Assembly (NCBI GenBank): GCA_002718515.1
Contig: PBEX01000020.1
Coordinates: forward strand, 78,272-95,259
Length of the DNA: 16,988 nt
Reading direction: 5' to 3'
Origin: Phycisphaerae bacterium
GTDB taxonomy: Bacteria > Planctomycetota > Phycisphaerae > Phycisphaerales > SM1A02
Shown: in pieces, positions 5,219 through 14,567 of the stretch
How the letters are laid out: the number at the start of each line of letters is the position of its first letter
Numbering within the stretch: the first letter of the stretch is position 1
Notes under the pieces: generated by a model
Seen by the model: the letters and a program-made list of their open reading frames with translations, nothing else
Told to the model about the DNA's origin: nothing
Databases searched by the model: none
Translations under genes and position numbers: made by a program

Positions 5219-6226
5219 TTACTCAGCCCCTGAGACTGGTGCGATGTTCAACTCGACATTGAGGGCATCAGGGTTTTCGACACTGACATCGAGTTGGTGC
5301 CCTGCGCCATCCTTACCAATCGCAAGGAATGATGTGACTGGTTTAGAACTGATCAGTTGTTCCATATCTCTAGAAGCAAGTCTGATGACAGCAAAGACCG
5401 CGTATTCGCCTGATTTAATACCATCAATAATGTCAATGTCACCTTCAACGGTGACGTTTGAAATCGTTTTTCTTGGAAGTTCGACTGTATACGAAGCATA
5501 ATCCTCAGGTGGACCTGCCAAGATGATGCGAACTTGAGGAATAACCGTTTCCTCTTTCATGGACTGAATTTTAAATGTGACTTCGACTCGGCTTGGAGAG
5601 ACAGTGACATCTGGAACGTCAAGTGGAATGGGAAGACGAATCGCTGCGTCACGAGTATGAACGACGCCTGGTGAAAGTTGTTGAAGGGCTGAATCGCTCA
5701 CGACAGCTTGTACTGTGATTGCATCAGGCAATGTTGCTCTAATGCGTTTTGGAATACTGAGCGTAACCGTAGCGGGGTTTACTGTTACGTCACCGCTGAC
5801 TGTGACATTTGATAGGACCGCTTCGACTGCTGCTTCAACTTGAACCATCGTTTGGATATCAACATTAAATGCAGAAGGCTCAGCAGAAACAGTCGTTGCA
5901 CCAGATGTTTTCAATTCATCGAGTGCATTGAGTCTTGAAGCAATGTCATTGATGGAAACAGTGCCATCTGTTTCAGCGACGGTTAAATCGAGCCCGTTTG
6001 CACACGCTGCTTTTGCAGTATTGACCGCAGAGCGGGGGCCTGCAAGCGTTAGCGTGACAGAAGCAAAGGATGGTGTGACGGTGCTCGTCATGCCTTCGGG
6101 CGCTTTAAAACGTACTGTAGTCGTGACAGTTGCCTCAGTCTTTGTTTGACCTGCTGCCCAAAGCCAAATGATTACTGTGAGCGTTGTCACAAACAAGAGC
6201 ATGACACCAGTGTCTTTTTGTTTCAT
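5219..6226 (-). CDS. YbbR-domain protein, CdaR-like regulator of c-di-AMP synthase
   Basis: The 335-residue protein has one N-terminal membrane anchor (about residues 7-25, VMLLFVTTLTVIIWLWAAG) and a long beta-rich, extracytoplasmic part with repeating modules of about 80 residues (for example FKAPEGMTSTVTPSFASVTLTLAGPR and later VTVSPSRVEVTFKIQ), typical of YbbR-like proteins. In Firmicutes cdaR (ybbR) follows cdaA and its product binds and modulates the cyclase. The same order is seen here: its ATG overlaps the cdaA TGA by 4 bp (ATGA), with GGAG 8 nt upstream. Assignment rests on topology, repeat pattern and synteny more than on strict sequence motifs, so the name cdaR is an inference. Confidence 0.8.
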   Translation of the reverse strand: MKQKDTGVMLLFVTTLTVIIWLWAAGQTKTEATVTTTVRFKAPEGMTSTVTPSFASVTLTLAGPRSAVNTAKAACANGLDLTVAETDGTVSINDIASRLNALDELKTSGATTVSAEPSAFNVDIQTMVQVEAAVEAVLSNVTVSGDVTVNPATVTLSIPKRIRATLPDAITVQAVVSDSALQQLSPGVVHTRDAAIRLPIPLDVPDVTVSPSRVEVTFKIQSMKEETVIPQVRIILAGPPEDYASYTVELPRKTISNVTVEGDIDIIDGIKSGEYAVFAVIRLASRDMEQLISSKPVTSFLAIGKDGAGHQLDVSVENPDALNVELNIAPVSGAE

Positions 6227-7083
6227 TCTGCTGACTCCGGTGTTGCTTGTGGATTCAATTCGGTTTCTTCGAGTTCTTCAGGTTCAGTATCTGATTCACT
6301 GCTTATCTCAGCATTCAACCGTGTAGTGAGCGTTTGTTCTAACTCATCTCTGTCTACAGTTGTCAGAACGCCTTGTTCAGCAATTGAAATGCGACCAGTC
6401 TGTTCACTGATGACGACAATGAGTGCATCACACCGCATTGATAAGCCAATGGCGGCTCTATGTCTTGAGCCTAACTCTGAGGGCAGAGCTACCGAATCAT
6501 CTGCAAGTGGAAACTGTACGCTTGCTTTTGTGATTCTGTCACCTCGAATAATGAGACCTAAATCATGTAATGGGTTGTTCGGCCAAAAGATAGACTGAAG
6601 TAATGACGAACTGACTTGCGCATCAATCACCTGTCCACCAATGACGTGATCAGATGTGCGGTTTTCACGCTCAATGGCAATGAGCCCGCCAAATTGATTT
6701 CGACTTAAAAAGACGGATGCGTCAGCGATTGATGTAATTGTGATATCACCAATCGTAGGGGCGTGACTGAAGCGTGAGAAGAGCCCAGATTGGCTGACTC
6801 GCAGTGCAGCTTGCCTCAGTTCTGGCTGGAAGATGATGATGAGTAGCAAAACGACATATGTCAAGAATTGCTCAGCAAAGAAATCAAGTCGCTGGAATTG
6901 CCCTGTCGTATCGGCAAGCATTTGGAGTAGCCAAAGTGGTGCGAGTAAGACAATAAGACCGCGAATGACACCGCCACCTCTCGTGCCTTGTAAAAAACGA
7001 AATGCTAAAAAGACGCTAAGCCAAATGATGAGAAGCTCAATAATGGTCTCAAAAACATCGTATCCAAAAATATTCCAACTCAT
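6223..7083 (-). CDS. cdaA: CdaA-type diadenylate cyclase (DisA_N domain), variant DLG motif
   Basis: Membrane-bound cyclase of the DAC family, expected to condense two ATP into c-di-AMP at the cytoplasmic face. There are three N-terminal transmembrane helices (about residues 10-30, 38-58 and 70-86, the last ending in IIIFQPELR), then the DAC domain about 108-252. Family landmarks are visible: GGLIAIERE (132-140), DAQVSSSLLQSIF (154-166), NNPLHD (169-174), ELGSRHRAAIGLS (203-215, the RHR motif) and VVISEQTG (223-230). The canonical DGA after LHD is DLG here (Asp174-Leu175-Gly176); codons checked on the complementary strand. A Glu-rich tail (about 262-286) follows. Start ATG has no clear Shine-Dalgarno; a TATACT box lies 10 nt upstream. 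Operon with the downstream ybbR-like gene. Confidence 0.9.
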   Translation of the reverse strand: MSWNIFGYDVFETIIELLIIWLSVFLAFRFLQGTRGGGVIRGLIVLLAPLWLLQMLADTTGQFQRLDFFAEQFLTYVVLLLIIIFQPELRQAALRVSQSGLFSRFSHAPTIGDITITSIADASVFLSRNQFGGLIAIERENRTSDHVIGGQVIDAQVSSSLLQSIFWPNNPLHDLGLIIRGDRITKASVQFPLADDSVALPSELGSRHRAAIGLSMRCDALIVVISEQTGRISIAEQGVLTTVDRDELEQTLTTRLNAEISSESDTEPEELEETELNPQATPESAE

Positions 7084-8496: not shown

Positions 8497-9273
8497 GTGC
8501 CAAATTCCAGTCAATCACAACATGGACATTCTGTTTCGGATGCGTCGTCTGAGCATCGCGCTTCATCTATGGTTGTGCTTCTGCTGATTTCATTTGTCAT
8601 CGGCCTCTGCTTGTCAACAGTTACTTGGGGAGAAGTGTTGTTCGTGGAAGATGATTCAACACGACACAATGAACTCACGTTGCCCACTCTCAAATCACAA
8701 GTAGAAGACGCACTAGGACTGTCCGTTGCAACCATTCAAGCGACCTTTGAAAGGCCTCAAGAGGGGACCGTTCCAATCCCATGGCGTAATCAACTAGAAC
8801 CTGTCATTCGAATCGCACTCCCGCAACAATGGGTTTCAGATCGTGCTTCAATACAAGGCTCACAATTCATCGTGTTAGAAGAAGTGAAGCACATCGCACT
8901 GCTTGCTGTTCCGAGTGCTCGCATCGAACTTCAAGTTGTTCCTCAGCAGCAAGTGCTCGCCGGTTCAACTGAGCAGCCAATGTTTCTAGGTAAGCAAGTT
9001 GTCGTCCTTCTTGGACTTGTCGCAATGTTCTTTGCAACATACGTCACATCTCGCAGAAAGAGTAACGTTGAAACAGTCTCTTACAATCCGCTCTTTAATG
9101 CGTCGAGTGAAGCCGAACGCATTCTTCAAATGGATTACGTCCATGCGAGACAAGCCATCGACCGGCTCCATGGCAACCGAAAACAAGAAGTGCTTCATCA
9201 CATTGCTTCAAATGAAGAAGAACTCATACCAATTGTGGAAGTGTCTACACAGAAACAGCACGCAACTGTGTGA
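8497..9273 (+). CDS. Two-helix membrane protein of unknown function
   Basis: The 258-residue protein has two transmembrane segments, about residues 25-43 and 167-184, separated by an extracytoplasmic domain of about 120 residues (LPTLKSQVEDALGLSVATIQ ... IRIALPQQWV), and ends in a cytoplasmic, helix-rich tail (SEAERILQMDYVHARQAIDRL). The topology and the middle segment recall the FliF/SctJ ring-protein layout, but I see no convincing motif and no flagellar or secretion genes nearby, so this stays a hint. The start is GTG at 8497, chosen because of an excellent Shine-Dalgarno (GGAGAGGA, 6 nt upstream); the ATG at 8490 is out of frame. It is convergent with the DegT-like gene, with 5 bp between stops. 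Confidence 0.78.
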   Translation: MPNSSQSQHGHSVSDASSEHRASSMVVLLLISFVIGLCLSTVTWGEVLFVEDDSTRHNELTLPTLKSQVEDALGLSVATIQATFERPQEGTVPIPWRNQLEPVIRIALPQQWVSDRASIQGSQFIVLEEVKHIALLAVPSARIELQVVPQQQVLAGSTEQPMFLGKQVVVLLGLVAMFFATYVTSRRKSNVETVSYNPLFNASSEAERILQMDYVHARQAIDRLHGNRKQEVLHHIASNEEELIPIVEVSTQKQHATV

Positions 9274-9278
9274 ATCTG

Positions 9279-10448
9279 TTAAATGTCACTGAACGTTCCG
9301 CGGGTCAACATTAATTCTAGCGTCTGACAAACGATGTCGACATCTCGTTGTGTGAGCGTCGTGTAGAAGGGAAGTGCTACCGTGCGTTTCGCAAGCGATT
9401 GTGCGACAGGACAGGCGTTTTCCTTCGTGTCAAATGAATGGAAGGGCGGAAGTGTAGGAATCGATTGGTAGAAATCCGCAGCACCGATCTCATGTCGATG
9501 AAGTCCTCGAATGACTTCATCGCGTTCTTCCCTTGAAAACCGGTCTCCAAGCCGAACGACATAGCCATCCCAGCTCATCTCAACATCAGGCTCAATGGTT
9601 GGGCACATAATCTCTGAGACGCCGCAAAGGCGCTCCGTGTACCACTCTGCAATTGCTGCCCGTTTTTCTAGAATGGATTCCATGCGGTTCATCTGAACGC
9701 ACCCAACTGCAGCATGGACTTCGCTGAGCCGGTACCCATGACCTCTGGTGTGTAAATGTTCAGAGGTACGGACTTGGTGAAGTTCATCAAGCGTCGCGAC
9801 ATGGCTATGGTCATACCCGTGGTTTCTCGATAGCCTACACCGTGTTGCAAGATGGTCGTCGTCTGTGACAATCATGCCACCTTCAACGCACGTTAGTTGA
9901 GCAGCTGAGTGGAACGCAAACACGGCAACCCTTCCGAATGTTCCAACTTGGCGTTCCCCAAGTTTGCTCCCAATGGCTTGTCTCGCATCTTCGATGAGAG
10001 GAATTTCATATTCTTGAGCAATTCGGGCAAGTTCATCGATGCCAGAGGGGCTTCCGAATGTGTGCGTCGCAATGATTGCTTTGGTTGACTCCACAATCTT
10101 CGATTCAACATCTTTTGCATCTAAGTTTAATGTCCTAGCGTCGCAATCGACGAATCGTGGCGTCGCTCCAATATGCAGAATGGCTGAAGCAGTCGATGGG
10201 AAAGCGAAAGACGCAGTAAGCACTTCGTGACCATTTCCTATGCCAAGTGACTCAAGTGCAATTTCCATTGCGCTATTGCCAGAATTTGTGGCAATGCCAT
10301 TTCTGTTGTTGGTGTGTTTGCTAACGAGGCCCTCAAACTTTTCCGTCCATGGACCAAGTGTTAATTTTTGACTACGCAACGCATCAGTTGCTGCAAGAAT
10401 TTCTTCTTCAGTAATGTTTGCAAGACTTAGAGGAATTTGGGAAGACAC
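9279..10448 (-). CDS. DegT/DnrJ/EryC1-family protein lacking the PLP-binding lysine
   Basis: Overall a complete 389-residue member of the sugar aminotransferase family (PLP fold type I). Recognisable segments are NSGNSAMEIALESLGIGNGHEV (55-76), TASFAFPSTASAILHIGATPRFVD (78-101), HTFGSPSGIDEL (129-140), LIEDARQAIGSKLG (151-164, with the Asp that normally holds the pyridine nitrogen), and RLSEVHAAVG. The active-site motif, normally FSFHxxKxxTTGEGG, reads FAFHSAAQLTCVEGG (177-191): the lysine position is Ala183 (GCT), confirmed from the complementary bases 9900-9902. Other usual PLP contacts are also altered (SGT to SGN; GYNYR to GHGYR). It is therefore unlikely to be a normal transaminase; a lysine-independent activity or a binding/regulatory role is possible. 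GTG start, 5 nt after the stop of the upstream helical-repeat gene. Confidence 0.88.
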   Translation of the reverse strand: MSSQIPLSLANITEEEILAATDALRSQKLTLGPWTEKFEGLVSKHTNNRNGIATNSGNSAMEIALESLGIGNGHEVLTASFAFPSTASAILHIGATPRFVDCDARTLNLDAKDVESKIVESTKAIIATHTFGSPSGIDELARIAQEYEIPLIEDARQAIGSKLGERQVGTFGRVAVFAFHSAAQLTCVEGGMIVTDDDHLATRCRLSRNHGYDHSHVATLDELHQVRTSEHLHTRGHGYRLSEVHAAVGCVQMNRMESILEKRAAIAEWYTERLCGVSEIMCPTIEPDVEMSWDGYVVRLGDRFSREERDEVIRGLHRHEIGAADFYQSIPTLPPFHSFDTKENACPVAQSLAKRTVALPFYTTLTQRDVDIVCQTLELMLTRGTFSDI

Positions 10449-10453
10449 TTCAG

Positions 10454-11929
10454 TTACTGTGTGCTTACTGCGGCAAGCGCTTTATCAGCAAGACCCATCT
10501 TCTTGAGATAGAGCCAAGCTGCTTGTGTTTTGAGTGGCTGAATGACATCGCCGCCACCAGCTGCAATGATGCCCAGATACTTTTGGTCGATGTCTGGGAG
10601 TGGTTCTTGCCCGCGCGCCATCAATAACAATGTCATCACATCCGCTTTGTTTACGCCAATTCTTTTCAACATGGACGCTTGTTCGATGGCGTCATTCATG
10701 ATGAGGTCGTCTGTAATCTGAAGCATTTCGAACAGCATGTATTCTTGTTGTGCACTGTCATCTTTTGTTTCATGCAACAACTCCCATGCCTTCTCCGGTT
10801 TGATAGTGATGAGTTGTCTGAATGCGCGGCTTGCGGAGTATCTGCGCCTTAGTGATGCGTCATCTTCAAACTGTGCAAGTTCACCGTAGAGCCGAATTTG
10901 ATTTGCTTCGCTAAGTTTTTGGGCAGCATCAAATGCCCACTCGGTTGAATCGCGATGGCCGCGTTTGATGAGGTTGGCAAGTGCATCAACTTCGCTGTCT
11001 GTCACGCGGTCGATTGGTTTATTCACAGCACCAGAAGTCGCCATTAACCCAAGCAATGAATCATCAAGATCGATGTCTAGCCTTTCAATCATTTTTGATG
11101 TTGGAATAATGTCTGATTCCAACAGAATAAGTAAATACCTAACTTGTTCTTTCCTACTTGGTTCAGTTGGGAATTGACTCTCCCAAAGGGCGATGCCTTC
11201 ATCAGGCGCGATTTTTAGCAGTGTGTGCAGTGCAAAGTATCGTTCATTGTCGTTGAGTACGATTGCGTTGTTTTCGATAATGTCTTTCAACCAAACGGCA
11301 GCGCTTTGTAATTCGTATTGACGAATCATTTCGAAAGTCGTTTGGAGCGCTTTATCTTTTTCAATGCTTGAAGCTCTTCTCAGTCGTCTTGTGACTTCAT
11401 CGATGACTTCTTCATCGCCAAGCAGGAGTGAAGCAAACATTGCAACACTCAACTCAGTTGTGCTTGATAATTCACGCAACATCGTTTTGTTTGGCTCTTC
11501 GCCAAGCATTGACAGTTCTGAAATCAGCCATAGTTTTGGAGTGTTTTCAAGAAGGGGCCACTTCAGAAGTGATTCCATCTGTTCTTTTTGAACGAGACCA
11601 TCGTCGATTGCTTCCAGCAATAAGTGCTCACGAGCAAGCGGTGCAACCTGTTGCACAAGCCACGGATCAATTGTTTGTTCATCGCTCAGTTCAGCAAGAC
11701 CAAGAACGGCATGCACTTGTACCGGCCAGTCAGGATGTTGTGCAAACTGAAAAAAGAAGGGGCGAAGGTCGATGTCTCTTAAGTTTCTAAGTGCGGCAAG
11801 GTGGATTAAACTGTTTTCACTGCTTGTCGCTTTTTGCAATTGCACAAGCGCTGCATCAGTTTTATCTGTGTCACGAGATACTGACGCAAACATCAATGTT
11901 GAAACCACCATGGCAATGATGCATTGCAT
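10454..11929 (-). CDS. Exported or membrane-associated HEAT-like helical repeat protein
   Basis: The 491-residue protein begins with a hydrophobic segment (IIAMVVSTLMFASVS, residues 4-18) that could be a signal peptide, though it lacks the usual N-terminal Lys/Arg. The rest is almost entirely amphipathic helix pairs with HEAT/armadillo spacing, for example SLIHLAALRNLRDIDLRPFF, WPVQVHAVLGLAELSDEQ and EHLLLEAIDDGLVQKEQ near the N-terminus. Such solenoids usually bind proteins. No catalytic motif is visible. The first ATG (11929) is used; Met7 is an alternative that would shorten the signal. It lies 5 nt upstream of the DegT-like gene, so both are probably one operon, and 95 bp after dnaA on the same strand with a hairpin between. 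Confidence 0.8.
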   Translation of the reverse strand: MQCIIAMVVSTLMFASVSRDTDKTDAALVQLQKATSSENSLIHLAALRNLRDIDLRPFFFQFAQHPDWPVQVHAVLGLAELSDEQTIDPWLVQQVAPLAREHLLLEAIDDGLVQKEQMESLLKWPLLENTPKLWLISELSMLGEEPNKTMLRELSSTTELSVAMFASLLLGDEEVIDEVTRRLRRASSIEKDKALQTTFEMIRQYELQSAAVWLKDIIENNAIVLNDNERYFALHTLLKIAPDEGIALWESQFPTEPSRKEQVRYLLILLESDIIPTSKMIERLDIDLDDSLLGLMATSGAVNKPIDRVTDSEVDALANLIKRGHRDSTEWAFDAAQKLSEANQIRLYGELAQFEDDASLRRRYSASRAFRQLITIKPEKAWELLHETKDDSAQQEYMLFEMLQITDDLIMNDAIEQASMLKRIGVNKADVMTLLLMARGQEPLPDIDQKYLGIIAAGGGDVIQPLKTQAAWLYLKKMGLADKALAAVSTQ

Positions 11930-11982: not shown

Positions 11983-12031
11983 GCGATGAAAGAAGTGCTG
12001 TTACTTCCTTGAAACAGCACTCCCTCATCGC
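11983..12031 (-). terminator. Large hairpin after dnaA
   Basis: A two-part inverted repeat: outer GCGATGA/TCATCGC (11983-11989 with 12025-12031, 7 bp, reaching into the dnaA stop codon) and inner AGTGCTGTT/AACAGCACT (11994-12002 with 12013-12021, perfect 9 bp, 10-nt loop), separated by a 4/3-nt internal loop. On the minus strand the structure is followed only by TTTG, and the inner stem by TCTTTC, so it is a weak intrinsic terminator at best. It may equally be a 3' stabilising structure on the dnaA mRNA. Confidence 0.6.
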
Positions 12032-13455
12032 GTGATTCGGGCAGGCTCCTTCCTTGCCCGTGCTTTTGTTGAACTAGACTGGGCGTGATTCCGAATTGCC
12101 CAAGTGAGTTGGTCGACGAGCTCCCGAATTTCTATATGCTCAGAACCACATTTTTGCTTTGGCGATTCACTTTGAAGTTCTTCGGTGATGCGTTTAACAG
12201 CAGCATGGACTGTTGAGTGATTCTTTCGACCGAGCGCTTGAGCGAGTTCTGGATAACTCATATTCGTCATTGAACGACCCAAGTATGCGGATACTGAACG
12301 CCAGAATACAACAGTCGTAGCCCTTGAACGTCCACGCAGTTCATTGCTCGTTATTGCTGCTCGTTTACAGACGGCTTCAATAACGTCATTCATGCTGACT
12401 TGCGTGTGCACAGTGTTTGATGATTTCATGACTTGTTGTACTGAGTCAATGCCTAAACACGATTCGTTCTTCATGAGTAGACCGGAAACGGCCTTAAGTC
12501 GCGTCATAACACCTTCTATCTCGCGGACTGAACCAACTGCTTGAGAAGCAAGGTGGTCGATGGCACCTTCCGTTAATGTGATGCCTTTGACAAGCGAAAG
12601 TTTGGCGATAATCTGTTTTCGTGTTTCACGGTCTGGCCTACTGATTTCAGCAATCATGCCAGCAACGAAGCGGTTCGCGAGGGCTCTGTTGAGTTGTTTG
12701 ATTTGGCGTGGGTCTTCGTCTGAAGCAAGAACGAGCCGAGCGCCTCTTAGACCTGCAGCGTCAAGGGTATGCAGGAGTTCTTCTTGGGTTTTCTTTTTGC
12801 TCGCAACGAAATGGACATCATCAATTGCGAGGAGGTCGAGTGTGCGGTAACGATTTCTAAAACGAGCGAAATCTCCGCACCTTGAACTGGCGATGAATTC
12901 GTTGGTGAACTGTTCTGCTGTGATGTAGCGGACTTTGCTTCCCTCAGCTTGAGCAGCGTGTTTGCAAATGGCTTGGAGGAGATGCGTTTTCCCTACGCCA
13001 CAAACGCCATGAATAAAGAGGGGAGAGATGCTGAGTCCGCCTGAGGATGACATCTCTTTGGCAGCAGCACACGCAAGTGCGTTGCACTGTCCGACGACGA
13101 ACTCATCGAAACCAAGTAGTTGCCTGACACGCTTGATGACAGGTCTTTGCGTTTGTTGAGATGAAACTAGAACTGGTTGAACATCTTCTTTTTGGGAGGT
13201 CTGCTCTTGAACGCCTACGGTGTATCGAATATCTTCGTTTCCATATGCATCTTGCAATGCTTTAGTGAGTTGTGCTGAAAACCGGTCTCGAATCCAACCT
13301 GCAGCAAGTGGTGTCGCAGCATGGATATGAACCTCATTGTCCCCGCAGTCAAATGTTGTGCCTGCAAACCACATGTTGTATGGTCGCTTACCCATCGATT
13401 GATTGAGCGATGCTCTTACTTGCTGCTCAATGATTGGGATGTTTGCTTGATCCAT
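12025..13455 (-). CDS. dnaA: Chromosomal replication initiator protein DnaA
   Basis: The 476-residue AAA+ ATPase that opens oriC. Domain I is about residues 1-80 (NMWFAGTTF), followed by a short linker. Domain III has Walker A GVCGVGKT (150-157), Walker B LLAIDDVHF (208-216), the arginine-finger region ALANRF (258-263) and sensor 2 VREIEGVMTRL (310-320). Domain IV has the DnaA signature ALGRKNHSTVHAAVKRI (407-423). The segment before it, RATTVVFWRSVSAYLGR, departs from the usual ARPRQxAMxLxRE. About 50 residues, ending in a basic stretch (STKARARKEPARITR), follow domain IV, longer than usual. ATG start with GAGG 13 nt upstream. Its upstream gap holds DnaA boxes. dnaN is not adjacent in this window. 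Confidence 0.97.
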   Translation of the reverse strand: MDQANIPIIEQQVRASLNQSMGKRPYNMWFAGTTFDCGDNEVHIHAATPLAAGWIRDRFSAQLTKALQDAYGNEDIRYTVGVQEQTSQKEDVQPVLVSSQQTQRPVIKRVRQLLGFDEFVVGQCNALACAAAKEMSSSGGLSISPLFIHGVCGVGKTHLLQAICKHAAQAEGSKVRYITAEQFTNEFIASSRCGDFARFRNRYRTLDLLAIDDVHFVASKKKTQEELLHTLDAAGLRGARLVLASDEDPRQIKQLNRALANRFVAGMIAEISRPDRETRKQIIAKLSLVKGITLTEGAIDHLASQAVGSVREIEGVMTRLKAVSGLLMKNESCLGIDSVQQVMKSSNTVHTQVSMNDVIEAVCKRAAITSNELRGRSRATTVVFWRSVSAYLGRSMTNMSYPELAQALGRKNHSTVHAAVKRITEELQSESPKQKCGSEHIEIRELVDQLTWAIRNHAQSSSTKARARKEPARITR

Positions 13456-13544: not shown

Positions 13545-13719
13545 TTACTCAATAAAAAAATGAATGCAACCCCTCAGTATGAGATAGAGATTCGGTTTCG
13601 ACACTCCATGTTTCATAAGTGCAGTGTTTTCCTGAGTCAACAGTCCTAAATTTTTTTTCAATTTGACTTATGCACATTTATGAACAAAGTGTGGACAAGT
13701 TCAGCACAACTTATGCATG
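13545..13719. other. Candidate chromosomal origin (oriC) upstream of dnaA
   Basis: The 245-bp gap between dnaA and the GNAT gene combines two AT-rich tracts (around 13545-13561 with a seven-A run, and around 13645-13667 with an eight-T run) and, next to the second, a cluster of DnaA-box-like 9-mers: TTATGCACA (13668-13676, perfect match to TTATNCACA), TTATGAACA (13678-13686, one mismatch, same strand, 10 bp apart), TTGTCCACA on the complementary strand (13690-13698, one mismatch) and TTATGCATG (13711-13719, two mismatches). Adjacent AT-rich DNA and phased boxes beside dnaA are the standard signature of a bacterial origin. GC-skew on the whole chromosome is needed to be sure; it could instead be only dnaA autoregulation. 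Confidence 0.65.
13668..13698. promoter_or_regulatory. DnaA box cluster
   Basis: Three 9-mers in 31 bp: TTATGCACA (+), TTATGAACA (+, starting 10 bp after the first, one helical turn) and TTGTCCACA (- strand). The first matches the TTATNCACA consensus exactly. They begin 3 bp after the AT-rich tract and end just outside the GNAT coding region. Confidence 0.72.
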
Positions 13720-14567
13720 AAAGCGTGCCGAGATTGAGTCTTTGTAAAGCCCCACTTGGCGTAGAGTTCCCCAGCGTTAACGTTCGCCTTGTCGACGACA
13801 AGCGTAATCCGTTGAAAGTCATGATGTTGTGCAAGTTGAATCGTTTTTGTGAGGCAGCAATCGGCAATGCCTCGTCCCCTTTGGCTTGGGATCACGCCGA
13901 CATACGCGAGTTCAAGGTCGCCATCTTTTGGATTGAGTAACAGAACGCAAGCAGGTGACTCGTCGATGGTGCCGATGAACCAGTACGCTGGCTGATAGGG
14001 TGTACTCATACGGTGTCCATCGATGATGTCTTGGATGGGACGGACGCCATGAAGATTTGGGCAATCAAGTGAGCCGACATATGTATCTTCAAGCACTTTT
14101 CCAAGTGCTACATCGTTGAGCGTTTCCATTGATTCAAAGTGAACTTCTGGTTTGTTAGAAACACGAGGCATCGGAATTGTTGCTTGTCGCTTTAGGTAGT
14201 TCAGTTTGGCAAGTTCTTCAAAGCCGGCCTCTGTGATGGCGTGAATCTGCAATGGCGGCACTGGCTCGTTGAGCACAATCTGAGCGAGCGTCAGGGATTG
14301 ACTACTCAATGCTGTTATGGCATGTTTCAAGAGCGATTGGAGGGTATCGCTATCGGCACTGCGTTCAGGAATGCTAGTCAATAAGGAAACAGTCCTGCCC
14401 TCGTTGATGACAGAGAGCACAGCCATTTCACCCTCACGGTAGAAAGTGTACGCTCCACACGCTTTTGACCTCAATAACTCAAGGAGGCGAATCCCGCCTT
14501 GTTTGCCAGCAATCAATTCTGCTGCAATGACCTCATGTTTCTTCGTATTCATGTGTACTGAAGGCAT
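13701..14567 (-). CDS. GNAT-family N-acetyltransferase, probably two-domain
   Basis: The 288-residue protein has a clear GNAT acetyl-CoA-binding half at the C-terminus (about 142-288): motif A LELAYVGVIPSQRGRGIAD (218-236) with the QRGRGI pyrophosphate loop, and motif B NVNAGELYAKWGF (262-274). The N-terminal half (about 20-130) has a similar order of helices and strands (LLELLRSKACGAYTFYREGE ... LTLAQIVLNEP) and is probably a degenerate GNAT fold, as in tandem-GNAT enzymes. The substrate cannot be predicted. ATG at 14567 has an AGGA only 2 nt upstream; Met6 is an alternative start. Its 3' end abuts the DnaA boxes; it is divergent from the exported protein gene at 14603. Confidence 0.87.
   Translation of the reverse strand: MPSVHMNTKKHEVIAAELIAGKQGGIRLLELLRSKACGAYTFYREGEMAVLSVINEGRTVSLLTSIPERSADSDTLQSLLKHAITALSSQSLTLAQIVLNEPVPPLQIHAITEAGFEELAKLNYLKRQATIPMPRVSNKPEVHFESMETLNDVALGKVLEDTYVGSLDCPNLHGVRPIQDIIDGHRMSTPYQPAYWFIGTIDESPACVLLLNPKDGDLELAYVGVIPSQRGRGIADCCLTKTIQLAQHHDFQRITLVVDKANVNAGELYAKWGFTKTQSRHAFMHKLC

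What the first reader, a model, noticed from the sequence alone, without database searches (positions are those of the whole stretch)
9279..10448. DegT/DnrJ/EryC1-family protein without its PLP lysine
The fold-defining segments are intact and the frame is clean over 389 codons, but the Schiff-base lysine of the FSFHxxK motif is Ala183 (GCT), two base changes from any Lys codon, so not a single sequencing error. The Asp for the pyridine nitrogen (EDA) remains, while the SGT phosphate contact is SGN and GYNYR is GHGYR. Known lysine-less members such as ColD use His instead; Ala is different. This points to a pseudo-enzyme with a binding or regulatory role, or to a different chemistry.
Basis: partly seen in the sequence, partly recalled or inferred. 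Interest (0 to 1): 0.7.

Follow-up and report, generated by a model that had tools for sequence, protein, structure and literature searches.

The report
Sugar-aminotransferase look-alike without catalytic lysine
A marine planctomycete gene next to the replication initiator gene dnaA encodes a protein built like a sugar-modifying enzyme but lacking the lysine such enzymes need; relatives across a bacterial family have kept this apparently non-catalytic protein under strong selection, so it probably does another job.

Summary
The ORF (minus strand, 389 aa) is a DegT/ArnB-type sugar-aminotransferase fold with Ala at the Schiff-base lysine. It is no lone exception: in its clade of 87 sequences (query included) none has Lys there (Thr 37, Ala 30, Ser 20). 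Thr58 and Asn238 are also gone, while Asp154 stays in 87 of 87. Selection is purifying (dN/dS 0.034-0.10 in the clade). In the window's family 137 of 151 genomes could be assigned: 101 K-less, 36 with Lys. The 18 other DegT loci read in nine genomes of the genus keep Lys. What survives the loss is a set of residues outside the lysine motif (E148, R318; less strictly H319, R383) that the Lys-bearing relatives also have. Best reading: an aminotransferase fold turned into a non-catalytic binding or scaffold protein, probably co-expressed with DnaA. Partner and ligand are unknown; no assay exists. The number of lysine losses is unsettled (one to four). New variant of a known kind (pseudoenzyme).

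The parts
9279..10448 (-). K-less DegT-fold protein, 389 aa, GTG start
9900..9902 (-). Codon GCT, Ala183, at the Schiff-base lysine position
   Evidence: 87 of 87 clade sequences not Lys
10275..10277 (-). Asn58, at the Thr of the SGT motif (Thr in 33 of 33 Lys-bearing relatives, 3 of 82 clade members with a letter there)
   Evidence: phosphate role recalled
9735..9737 (-). Gly238, at the Asn of GYNYR (Asn in 33 of 33 Lys-bearing relatives, 0 of 87 clade members)
   Evidence: contact across the dimer recalled
9987..9989 (-). Asp154, pyridine-nitrogen Asp, kept in 87 of 87 of the window's clade, replaced in many other K-less copies
   Evidence: role recalled
10005..10007 (-). Glu148, frequency 1.00 over 80 K-less rows, 0.00 in 17 outgroup rows
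9492..9497 (-). Arg318-His319 (G-L-x-R-H-[DE]-I); Arg318 frequency 1.00 over 80 K-less rows, 0.00 in 17 outgroup rows
9300..9302 (-). Arg383 in the C-terminal helix (367-386)
10454..11929 (-). HEAT-repeat-like protein with a signal-peptide-like N-terminus; 5 bases lie between its stop codon and the DegT start codon
   Evidence: HEAT_2 E 1.6e-4, 22.3 bits, below its cut-off of 27.7; synteny; signal peptide judged by eye
12025..13455 (-). dnaA
   Evidence: Bac_DnaA, Bac_DnaA_C, DnaA_N; synteny
13701..14567 (-). GNAT-domain protein upstream of dnaA, part of the recurring neighbourhood

Best explanation
The gene descends from a working ArnB/perosamine-synthase-like sugar aminotransferase that sits behind dnaA in this planctomycete order. 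Shown: in a large part of one family, including the window's genus, the protein lacks the lysine and further cofactor contacts but has kept its place and, where measured, purifying selection; the window's own copy keeps the predicted fold. Inferred: it no longer transaminates; it works as a non-catalytic, probably dimeric (recalled for the family) binding or scaffold protein whose selected surface lies outside the old lysine site (E148, R318-H319, R383, C-terminal helices). Since these residues are also frequent in the Lys-bearing copies behind dnaA, that second function probably arose before the lysine was lost, which made the loss tolerable. In the window's own clade the pyridine-ring side of the pocket (D154, Q157) is kept, so a ligand may still bind without a covalent bond. 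Co-expression with DnaA is inferred from gene order; the partner is unknown.
For: No Lys in 87 of 87 clade sequences, residue 183 T 37, A 30, S 20. T58 in 3 of 82 and N238 in 0 of 87 clade members with a letter there; both 33 of 33 in Lys-bearing relatives. dN/dS (NG86) 0.034 window-L061, 0.050 window-L062; 0.034-0.170 over the 17 of 19 K-less pairs with a usable dS. HEAT or dnaA gene on the same strand of the fetched stretch at 93 of 94 K-less genomes; the exception is a 1312-base contig end. Genera g42 and g44, mostly without a hit at 1e-60, carry more eroded copies behind dnaA-HEAT in 7 of the 13 stretches fetched. E148 and R318 1.00 over 80 K-less rows, 0.00 in 17 outgroup rows, 0.98 and 0.88 in 49 Lys-bearing syntenic rows. 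C-terminal region more alike than the large domain in 46 of 59 clade A pairs and 84 of 84 clade A x g42/g44 pairs, against 4 of 131 outgroup pairs. 18 of 18 other DegT loci read in nine genomes of the genus keep Lys.
Against: No function was measured. In the R clade the C-terminal region is not the more alike one (70 of 455 pairs), nor between outgroup and clade A (24 of 204), and Lys-bearing copies of the same family are already even (87 of 175), so the shift is not tied cleanly to the loss. H319 and R383 are at 0.86 each over the 80 rows, and R318 is missing in 12% of Lys-bearing syntenic rows. E148 and R318 may be structural. D154 in 87 and Q157 in 84 of 87 could mean that the pocket is still used. 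The HEAT protein looks exported, which speaks against it as direct partner of a cytosolic protein. Gene order can reflect co-expression alone.
Confidence: 0.6

Rival explanations
1. Ligand sensor or sequestering protein: the window's clade still binds a B6 vitamer, PMP or a nucleotide (amino)sugar non-covalently in the old pocket, like the laboratory Lys-to-Ala mutants of ArnB, perosamine synthase and WbpE, and signals or stores it.
For: D154 87 of 87, Q157 84 of 87, F81 84 of 84, H180 82 of 87, R240 81 of 87. The fold matches include Lys-to-Ala mutants whose titles name bound sugar ligand (3dr4 K186A), PLP and UDP-Ara4N (4oca K188A) or PLP (3nys K185A).
Against: T58 and N238, the recalled phosphate-side contacts, are lost in the clade; many other K-less copies have replaced Asp154 as well, so a ligand role would be special to this clade.
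Confidence: 0.2
2. Inactive subunit of a heteromer: it pairs with a Lys-bearing DegT protein encoded elsewhere and modulates it, as SPTLC1 does for SPTLC2 (recalled).
For: Each of the nine genomes searched has at least one further DegT match; 18 of the 19 further matches were read, all with Lys. One paralog, in open frames of 420-487 codons, was read in seven of the nine. The DegT active site is recalled to be built at a dimer interface.
Against: With profile A1 at E <= 1e-60 each of the 11 window-genus genomes drawn has only the K-less copy; with profile A2 the best paralog reaches 7.2e-80 against 1e-162 or better for the K-less copy, so the paralogs are distant. None lies among the neighbours of the gene. 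N238, recalled to reach into the partner's site, is lost in the clade.
Confidence: 0.1
3. Different chemistry without lysine, for example a PMP-dependent dehydratase as in ColD or E1, with another residue such as H180 as base.
For: H129, H180 and Q157 differ from the Lys-bearing relatives (E, Y, E) and are nearly fixed in the clade: 85, 82 and 84 of 87. ColD and E1 belong to the same fold family.
Against: The lysine column itself drifts T/A/S; ColD and E1 have His there (recalled; an E1 H220K mutant, 3bb8, is listed). In the other K-less groups position 180 is most often Gly.
Confidence: 0.07
4. Decaying pseudogene or assembly error.
For: Active-site residues are lost.
Against: Open frame in several independent assemblies, dN/dS 0.034-0.10 in the clade, fixed residues, confident fold.
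Confidence: 0.01

Closest known systems
ArnB (1mdo, 4oca K188A) and GDP-perosamine synthase (3bn1, 3dr4 K186A)
   Different: Here the Lys-to-Ala state is natural and shared by a clade; T58 and N238 are lost too; the gene sits behind dnaA, and none of the nine neighbours scanned with Pfam matches a sugar-pathway family.
ColD / E1-type PMP-dependent dehydratases of the DegT family
   Same: DegT fold without the lysine.
   Different: They carry His at the lysine position (recalled); here Ala, in relatives Thr or Ser.
PseC (TIGR03588), the best NCBIfam model
   Same: Best-scoring curated family, 267.3 bits.
   Different: Far below that model's cut-off of 423.5 bits; none of the 11 NCBIfam models matched reaches its cut-off.
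Yeast Alt2 (PMC3458083, listing and abstract opening only) and SPTLC1 (recalled): aminotransferase-fold proteins without their ancestral activity
   Same: PLP fold kept, ancestral activity lost.
   Different: Eukaryotic and of other PLP families; Alt2 is one of a paralogous pair, whereas here the copy at the dnaA locus itself lacks the residue.
DiaA of E. coli (recalled): sugar-isomerase-like protein that binds DnaA
   Same: Precedent for a sugar-enzyme fold used at the replication initiator.
   Different: Another fold (recalled), and no DnaA binding has been shown here; analogy only.

Membership tests
DegT/DnrJ/EryC1 fold family (PF01041), by descent | Profile match above the curated cut-off | tested here: met
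   331.7 bits against 19.8
DegT/DnrJ/EryC1 fold family (PF01041), by descent | Fold-type I DegT structure | tested here: met
DegT PLP aminotransferase (enzyme) | Schiff-base lysine | tested here: not met
   Ala183; 87 of 87 clade sequences not Lys
DegT PLP aminotransferase (enzyme) | SGT Thr and GYNYR Asn | tested here: not met
   Asn58, Gly238
DegT PLP aminotransferase (enzyme) | Asp for the pyridine nitrogen | tested here: met
   D154 in 87 of 87
DegT PLP aminotransferase (enzyme) | PLP binding and transamination | not testable with these tools
   needs protein
ColD/E1-type dehydratase | His at the lysine position | tested here: not met
   A/T/S in 87 of 87 clade sequences; that His defines ColD/E1 is recalled
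Inactive subunit of a DegT heteromer | Lys-bearing partner in the same genome | tested here: inconclusive
   distant Lys-bearing paralogs exist; pairing unknown
DnaA-binding regulator | Gene in the same row as dnaA | tested here: met
   proximity is not binding
DnaA-binding regulator | Physical binding to DnaA | not testable with these tools
   single-chain prediction only

The most novel reading that the evidence does not exclude
A sugar-aminotransferase fold has become a dedicated, non-enzymatic partner of DnaA (or of replication initiation) in an order of Planctomycetota: a DiaA-like principle reached from a different fold, with the binding surface fixed before the lysine was lost.
Probability: 0.12. 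Interest if true: 0.85.

Novelty: new variant of a known kind. Interest (0 to 1): 0.6.

Why it matters
DegT-family proteins are usually annotated as aminotransferases on sight; source names of this kind appear. Here 101 of the 137 genomes that could be assigned in one planctomycete family carry a copy that cannot form the internal aldimine. To my knowledge it is a rare prokaryotic case in which the same gene, at the same place, can be compared with and without its catalytic residue across some 40 genera, so that the order of events (new function first, loss of catalysis later) becomes testable. If the link to DnaA is real, it would also offer an entry into replication control in a phylum where that is little known (recalled).

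Tried and rejected
Lone exception or sequencing error: rejected. Substitute lysine: no conserved candidate in the motif; distances not measured. ColD-like His: not at that column. Own genome: not held, so sister genomes were used.

Number of lysine losses: I expected several independent ones. The DegT tree of 118 rows needs three changes, starred branches force two; a tree of 83 rows needs two, and the AU test does not reject one single K-less clade (p 0.613, the held-together tree even scored better). The DnaA tree of 93 rows needs four changes, starred branches force one, and the AU test rejects one clade marginally (p 0.041); seven DnaA rows of the window's genus are flagged for odd composition, so this is weak. 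I claim only one to four.

C-terminal conservation as a universal rule: it fails in the R clade (70 of 455 pairs) and between outgroup and clade A (24 of 204), and it is already half-way in Lys-bearing copies of the family (87 of 175). HEAT protein as direct partner: weakened by its signal-peptide-like start (four members read by eye) and its absence in some Lys-bearing loci (L294). G161 and G155 show dnaA without HEAT and DegT in the stretch fetched; in G035, G162 and G090 neither followed the DnaA-like gene found, whose lower score suggests a second dnaA-like gene (my reading).

Relaxed selection: not seen. K-less pairs 0.034-0.170 overlap Lys-bearing pairs 0.077-0.213.

Papers: eight searches (one search listed 20 of 23, 15 of 18 papers). 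Listings and abstract openings only were seen, plus passages of PMC9309667 and PMC6522883. None of these reported a lysine-less DegT pseudoenzyme or a dnaA-DegT neighbourhood. The DiaA search listed no primary paper on its DnaA binding, so DiaA is recalled. Subscription journals are mostly not held.

Full report
CHECK. The reading frame is real and on the minus strand (10448 to 9279, GTG start, 389 aa). It is a full-length DegT-family protein (PF01041, 331.7 bits) but reaches no curated subfamily: of 11 NCBIfam models matched, the best, PseC, gives 267.3 bits against a cut-off of 423.5. Residue 183 is Ala (GCT, 9902-9900), in the column of the ArnB lysine (the K188A mutant 4oca is itself among the matches).

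CLOSE RELATIVES. The protein search found 2415 proteins at E <= 0.001; the best 120 were listed and aligned with the query. Of these 121 sequences 87 form the window's clade (query and a 99% copy included), none with Lys: T 37, A 30, S 20. 33 are Lys-bearing, mostly about 50% identical, and one (P0089) has Gln. In the clade T58 survives in 3 of 82 and N238 in 0 of 87 members with a letter there, whereas D154 is kept in 87, Q157 in 84 and H180 in 82 of 87. The lysine column thus drifts among small residues while one side of the pocket stays fixed. The other 2295 proteins were not seen.

SELECTION. Pairwise NG86 dN/dS is 0.034 for window against L061 (dN 0.044, dS 1.30) and 0.050 against L062. 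Of 26 pairs tried, 19 were K-less: 17 gave 0.034 to 0.170, two gave no dS (saturated). Of seven Lys-bearing pairs six gave 0.077 to 0.213 and one no dS. So the K-less copies are at least as constrained. Several dS values exceed 1 and are rough, and the stretches compared include a few codons before the start.

CONTEXT. Neighbouring ORFs (chosen by length and overlap, no gene finder) in 80 loci from named records and the window were clustered. Of these 81 loci the HEAT-like cluster occurs in 48, the dnaA cluster in 43, the GNAT cluster in 45 (a loose cluster, 60 members), and the next three in 35, 33 and 17; the last two are obgE and L27 by eye, not scanned. Many loci are cut by contig ends. 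The row obgE, L27, a further gene, GNAT gene, dnaA, HEAT-like gene, DegT recurs around K-less and Lys-bearing planctomycete copies alike, while what follows DegT differs between clades and the homologues outside the phylum have other neighbours. In the window 5 bases separate the HEAT stop codon from the DegT start codon.

HOW WIDE. In the window's family 132 of 151 genomes drawn had a match at 1e-60. I tabulated 130 of them: 94 without Lys, 36 with; the two left out by my script, G016 and G017, have Lys (L020 and L018). Two of the 36 'Lys' hits (G107, G122) are paralogs away from dnaA; their own copies behind dnaA-HEAT are K-less (L292, L287). Five further genomes without a hit at 1e-60 (G086, G058, G060, G148, G088) have eroded K-less copies behind dnaA-HEAT (alignment there is approximate). 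That makes 101 K-less, 36 with Lys and 14 not assigned, of 151. Residues at the site are R, S, T, A, E, D, G and, in the eroded copies, S, T, G and V. No genus is mixed in the table. Of the 94 K-less genomes 93 have the HEAT or dnaA gene on the same strand of the stretch fetched, of the 36 with Lys 30; the one K-less exception is a 1312-base contig end. All 24 genomes tabulated from other families have Lys, 18 of them with HEAT or dnaA at hand, but these come from the 30 best-scoring loci alone, so K-less copies in other families may have been missed. In nine genomes of the window's genus 18 of the 19 other DegT matches were read and all have Lys (L319 was not read); more distant paralogs than E 1e-15 were not sought there.

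WHAT IS KEPT. Over 80 K-less rows E148 and R318 are at 1.00, in the 17 outgroup rows at 0.00, in 49 Lys-bearing syntenic rows at 0.98 and 0.88. H319 (0.86 / 0.12 / 1.00) and R383 (0.86 / 0.06 / 1.00) behave alike. So a signature outside the lysine motif seems to have come first and outlived the lysine. In the outgroup the large domain is the more alike part (C-terminal part higher in 4 of 131 pairs). In clade A, the S/T clade, the S/D/E/G rows and g42/g44 it is the other way round (46 of 59, 13 of 13, 221 of 242, 21 of 21 pairs). Against a simple rule: R clade 70 of 455, outgroup x clade A 24 of 204, all Lys-bearing syntenic rows 159 of 1129, those of the family 87 of 175 (pairs of 75% identity or more in the large domain were dropped before counting). 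Conservation is not a structure: without coordinates I could not test whether these residues form one surface.

HISTORY. The number of losses is open. DegT trees need two or three changes, a DnaA tree four. A single K-less clade is not rejected on DegT (p 0.613) and marginally rejected on DnaA (p 0.041).

READING. Absence of the lysine with retained place and selection makes catalysis by the usual route most unlikely (inference; no assay). I take a non-catalytic binding or scaffold function as most likely, with a ligand sensor, a heteromer subunit and a lysine-free chemistry as rivals. Gene order suggests co-expression with DnaA; binding to DnaA is a bold reading that nothing here excludes. 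Roles given to single pocket residues, ColD/E1 chemistry, SPTLC1 and DiaA are recalled, not looked up.

Noticed in passing
L178 (G051) and L151 (G031): Lys-bearing copies with other pocket residues already lost: L178 has GSAAA and GWSCR, L151 has Val at the pyridine Asp. They may be intermediates.
   Followed up: no
P0089: A single protein among the Lys-bearing relatives reads FGFYPNQQ, Gln at the lysine; possibly an error or a fresh loss.
   Followed up: no
L181, L182, L184, L294 (genus g30; L182 and L294 are the same place): dnaA directly followed by a Lys-bearing DegT gene without the HEAT gene and without the R-H motif.
   Followed up: partly
5219-7083: A DisA-type diadenylate cyclase domain protein next to a YbbR-domain protein, like the CdaA-CdaR pair (recalled); both clusters recur in relatives of the window's genus.
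   Followed up: no
8497-9273: Protein without a Pfam match and with a hydrophobic N-terminal stretch (by eye), found next to the DegT gene only in the window's clade, 14 of 81 loci.
   Followed up: no
between 8377 and 8497; L063:12465-13439: A gene (cluster c21) that lies between these two neighbours in 11 relatives is missing in the window, L061 and L062.
   Followed up: no
G058, G086, G088, G122, G148: These genomes give two dnaA matches each, a strong and a weaker one.
   Followed up: no
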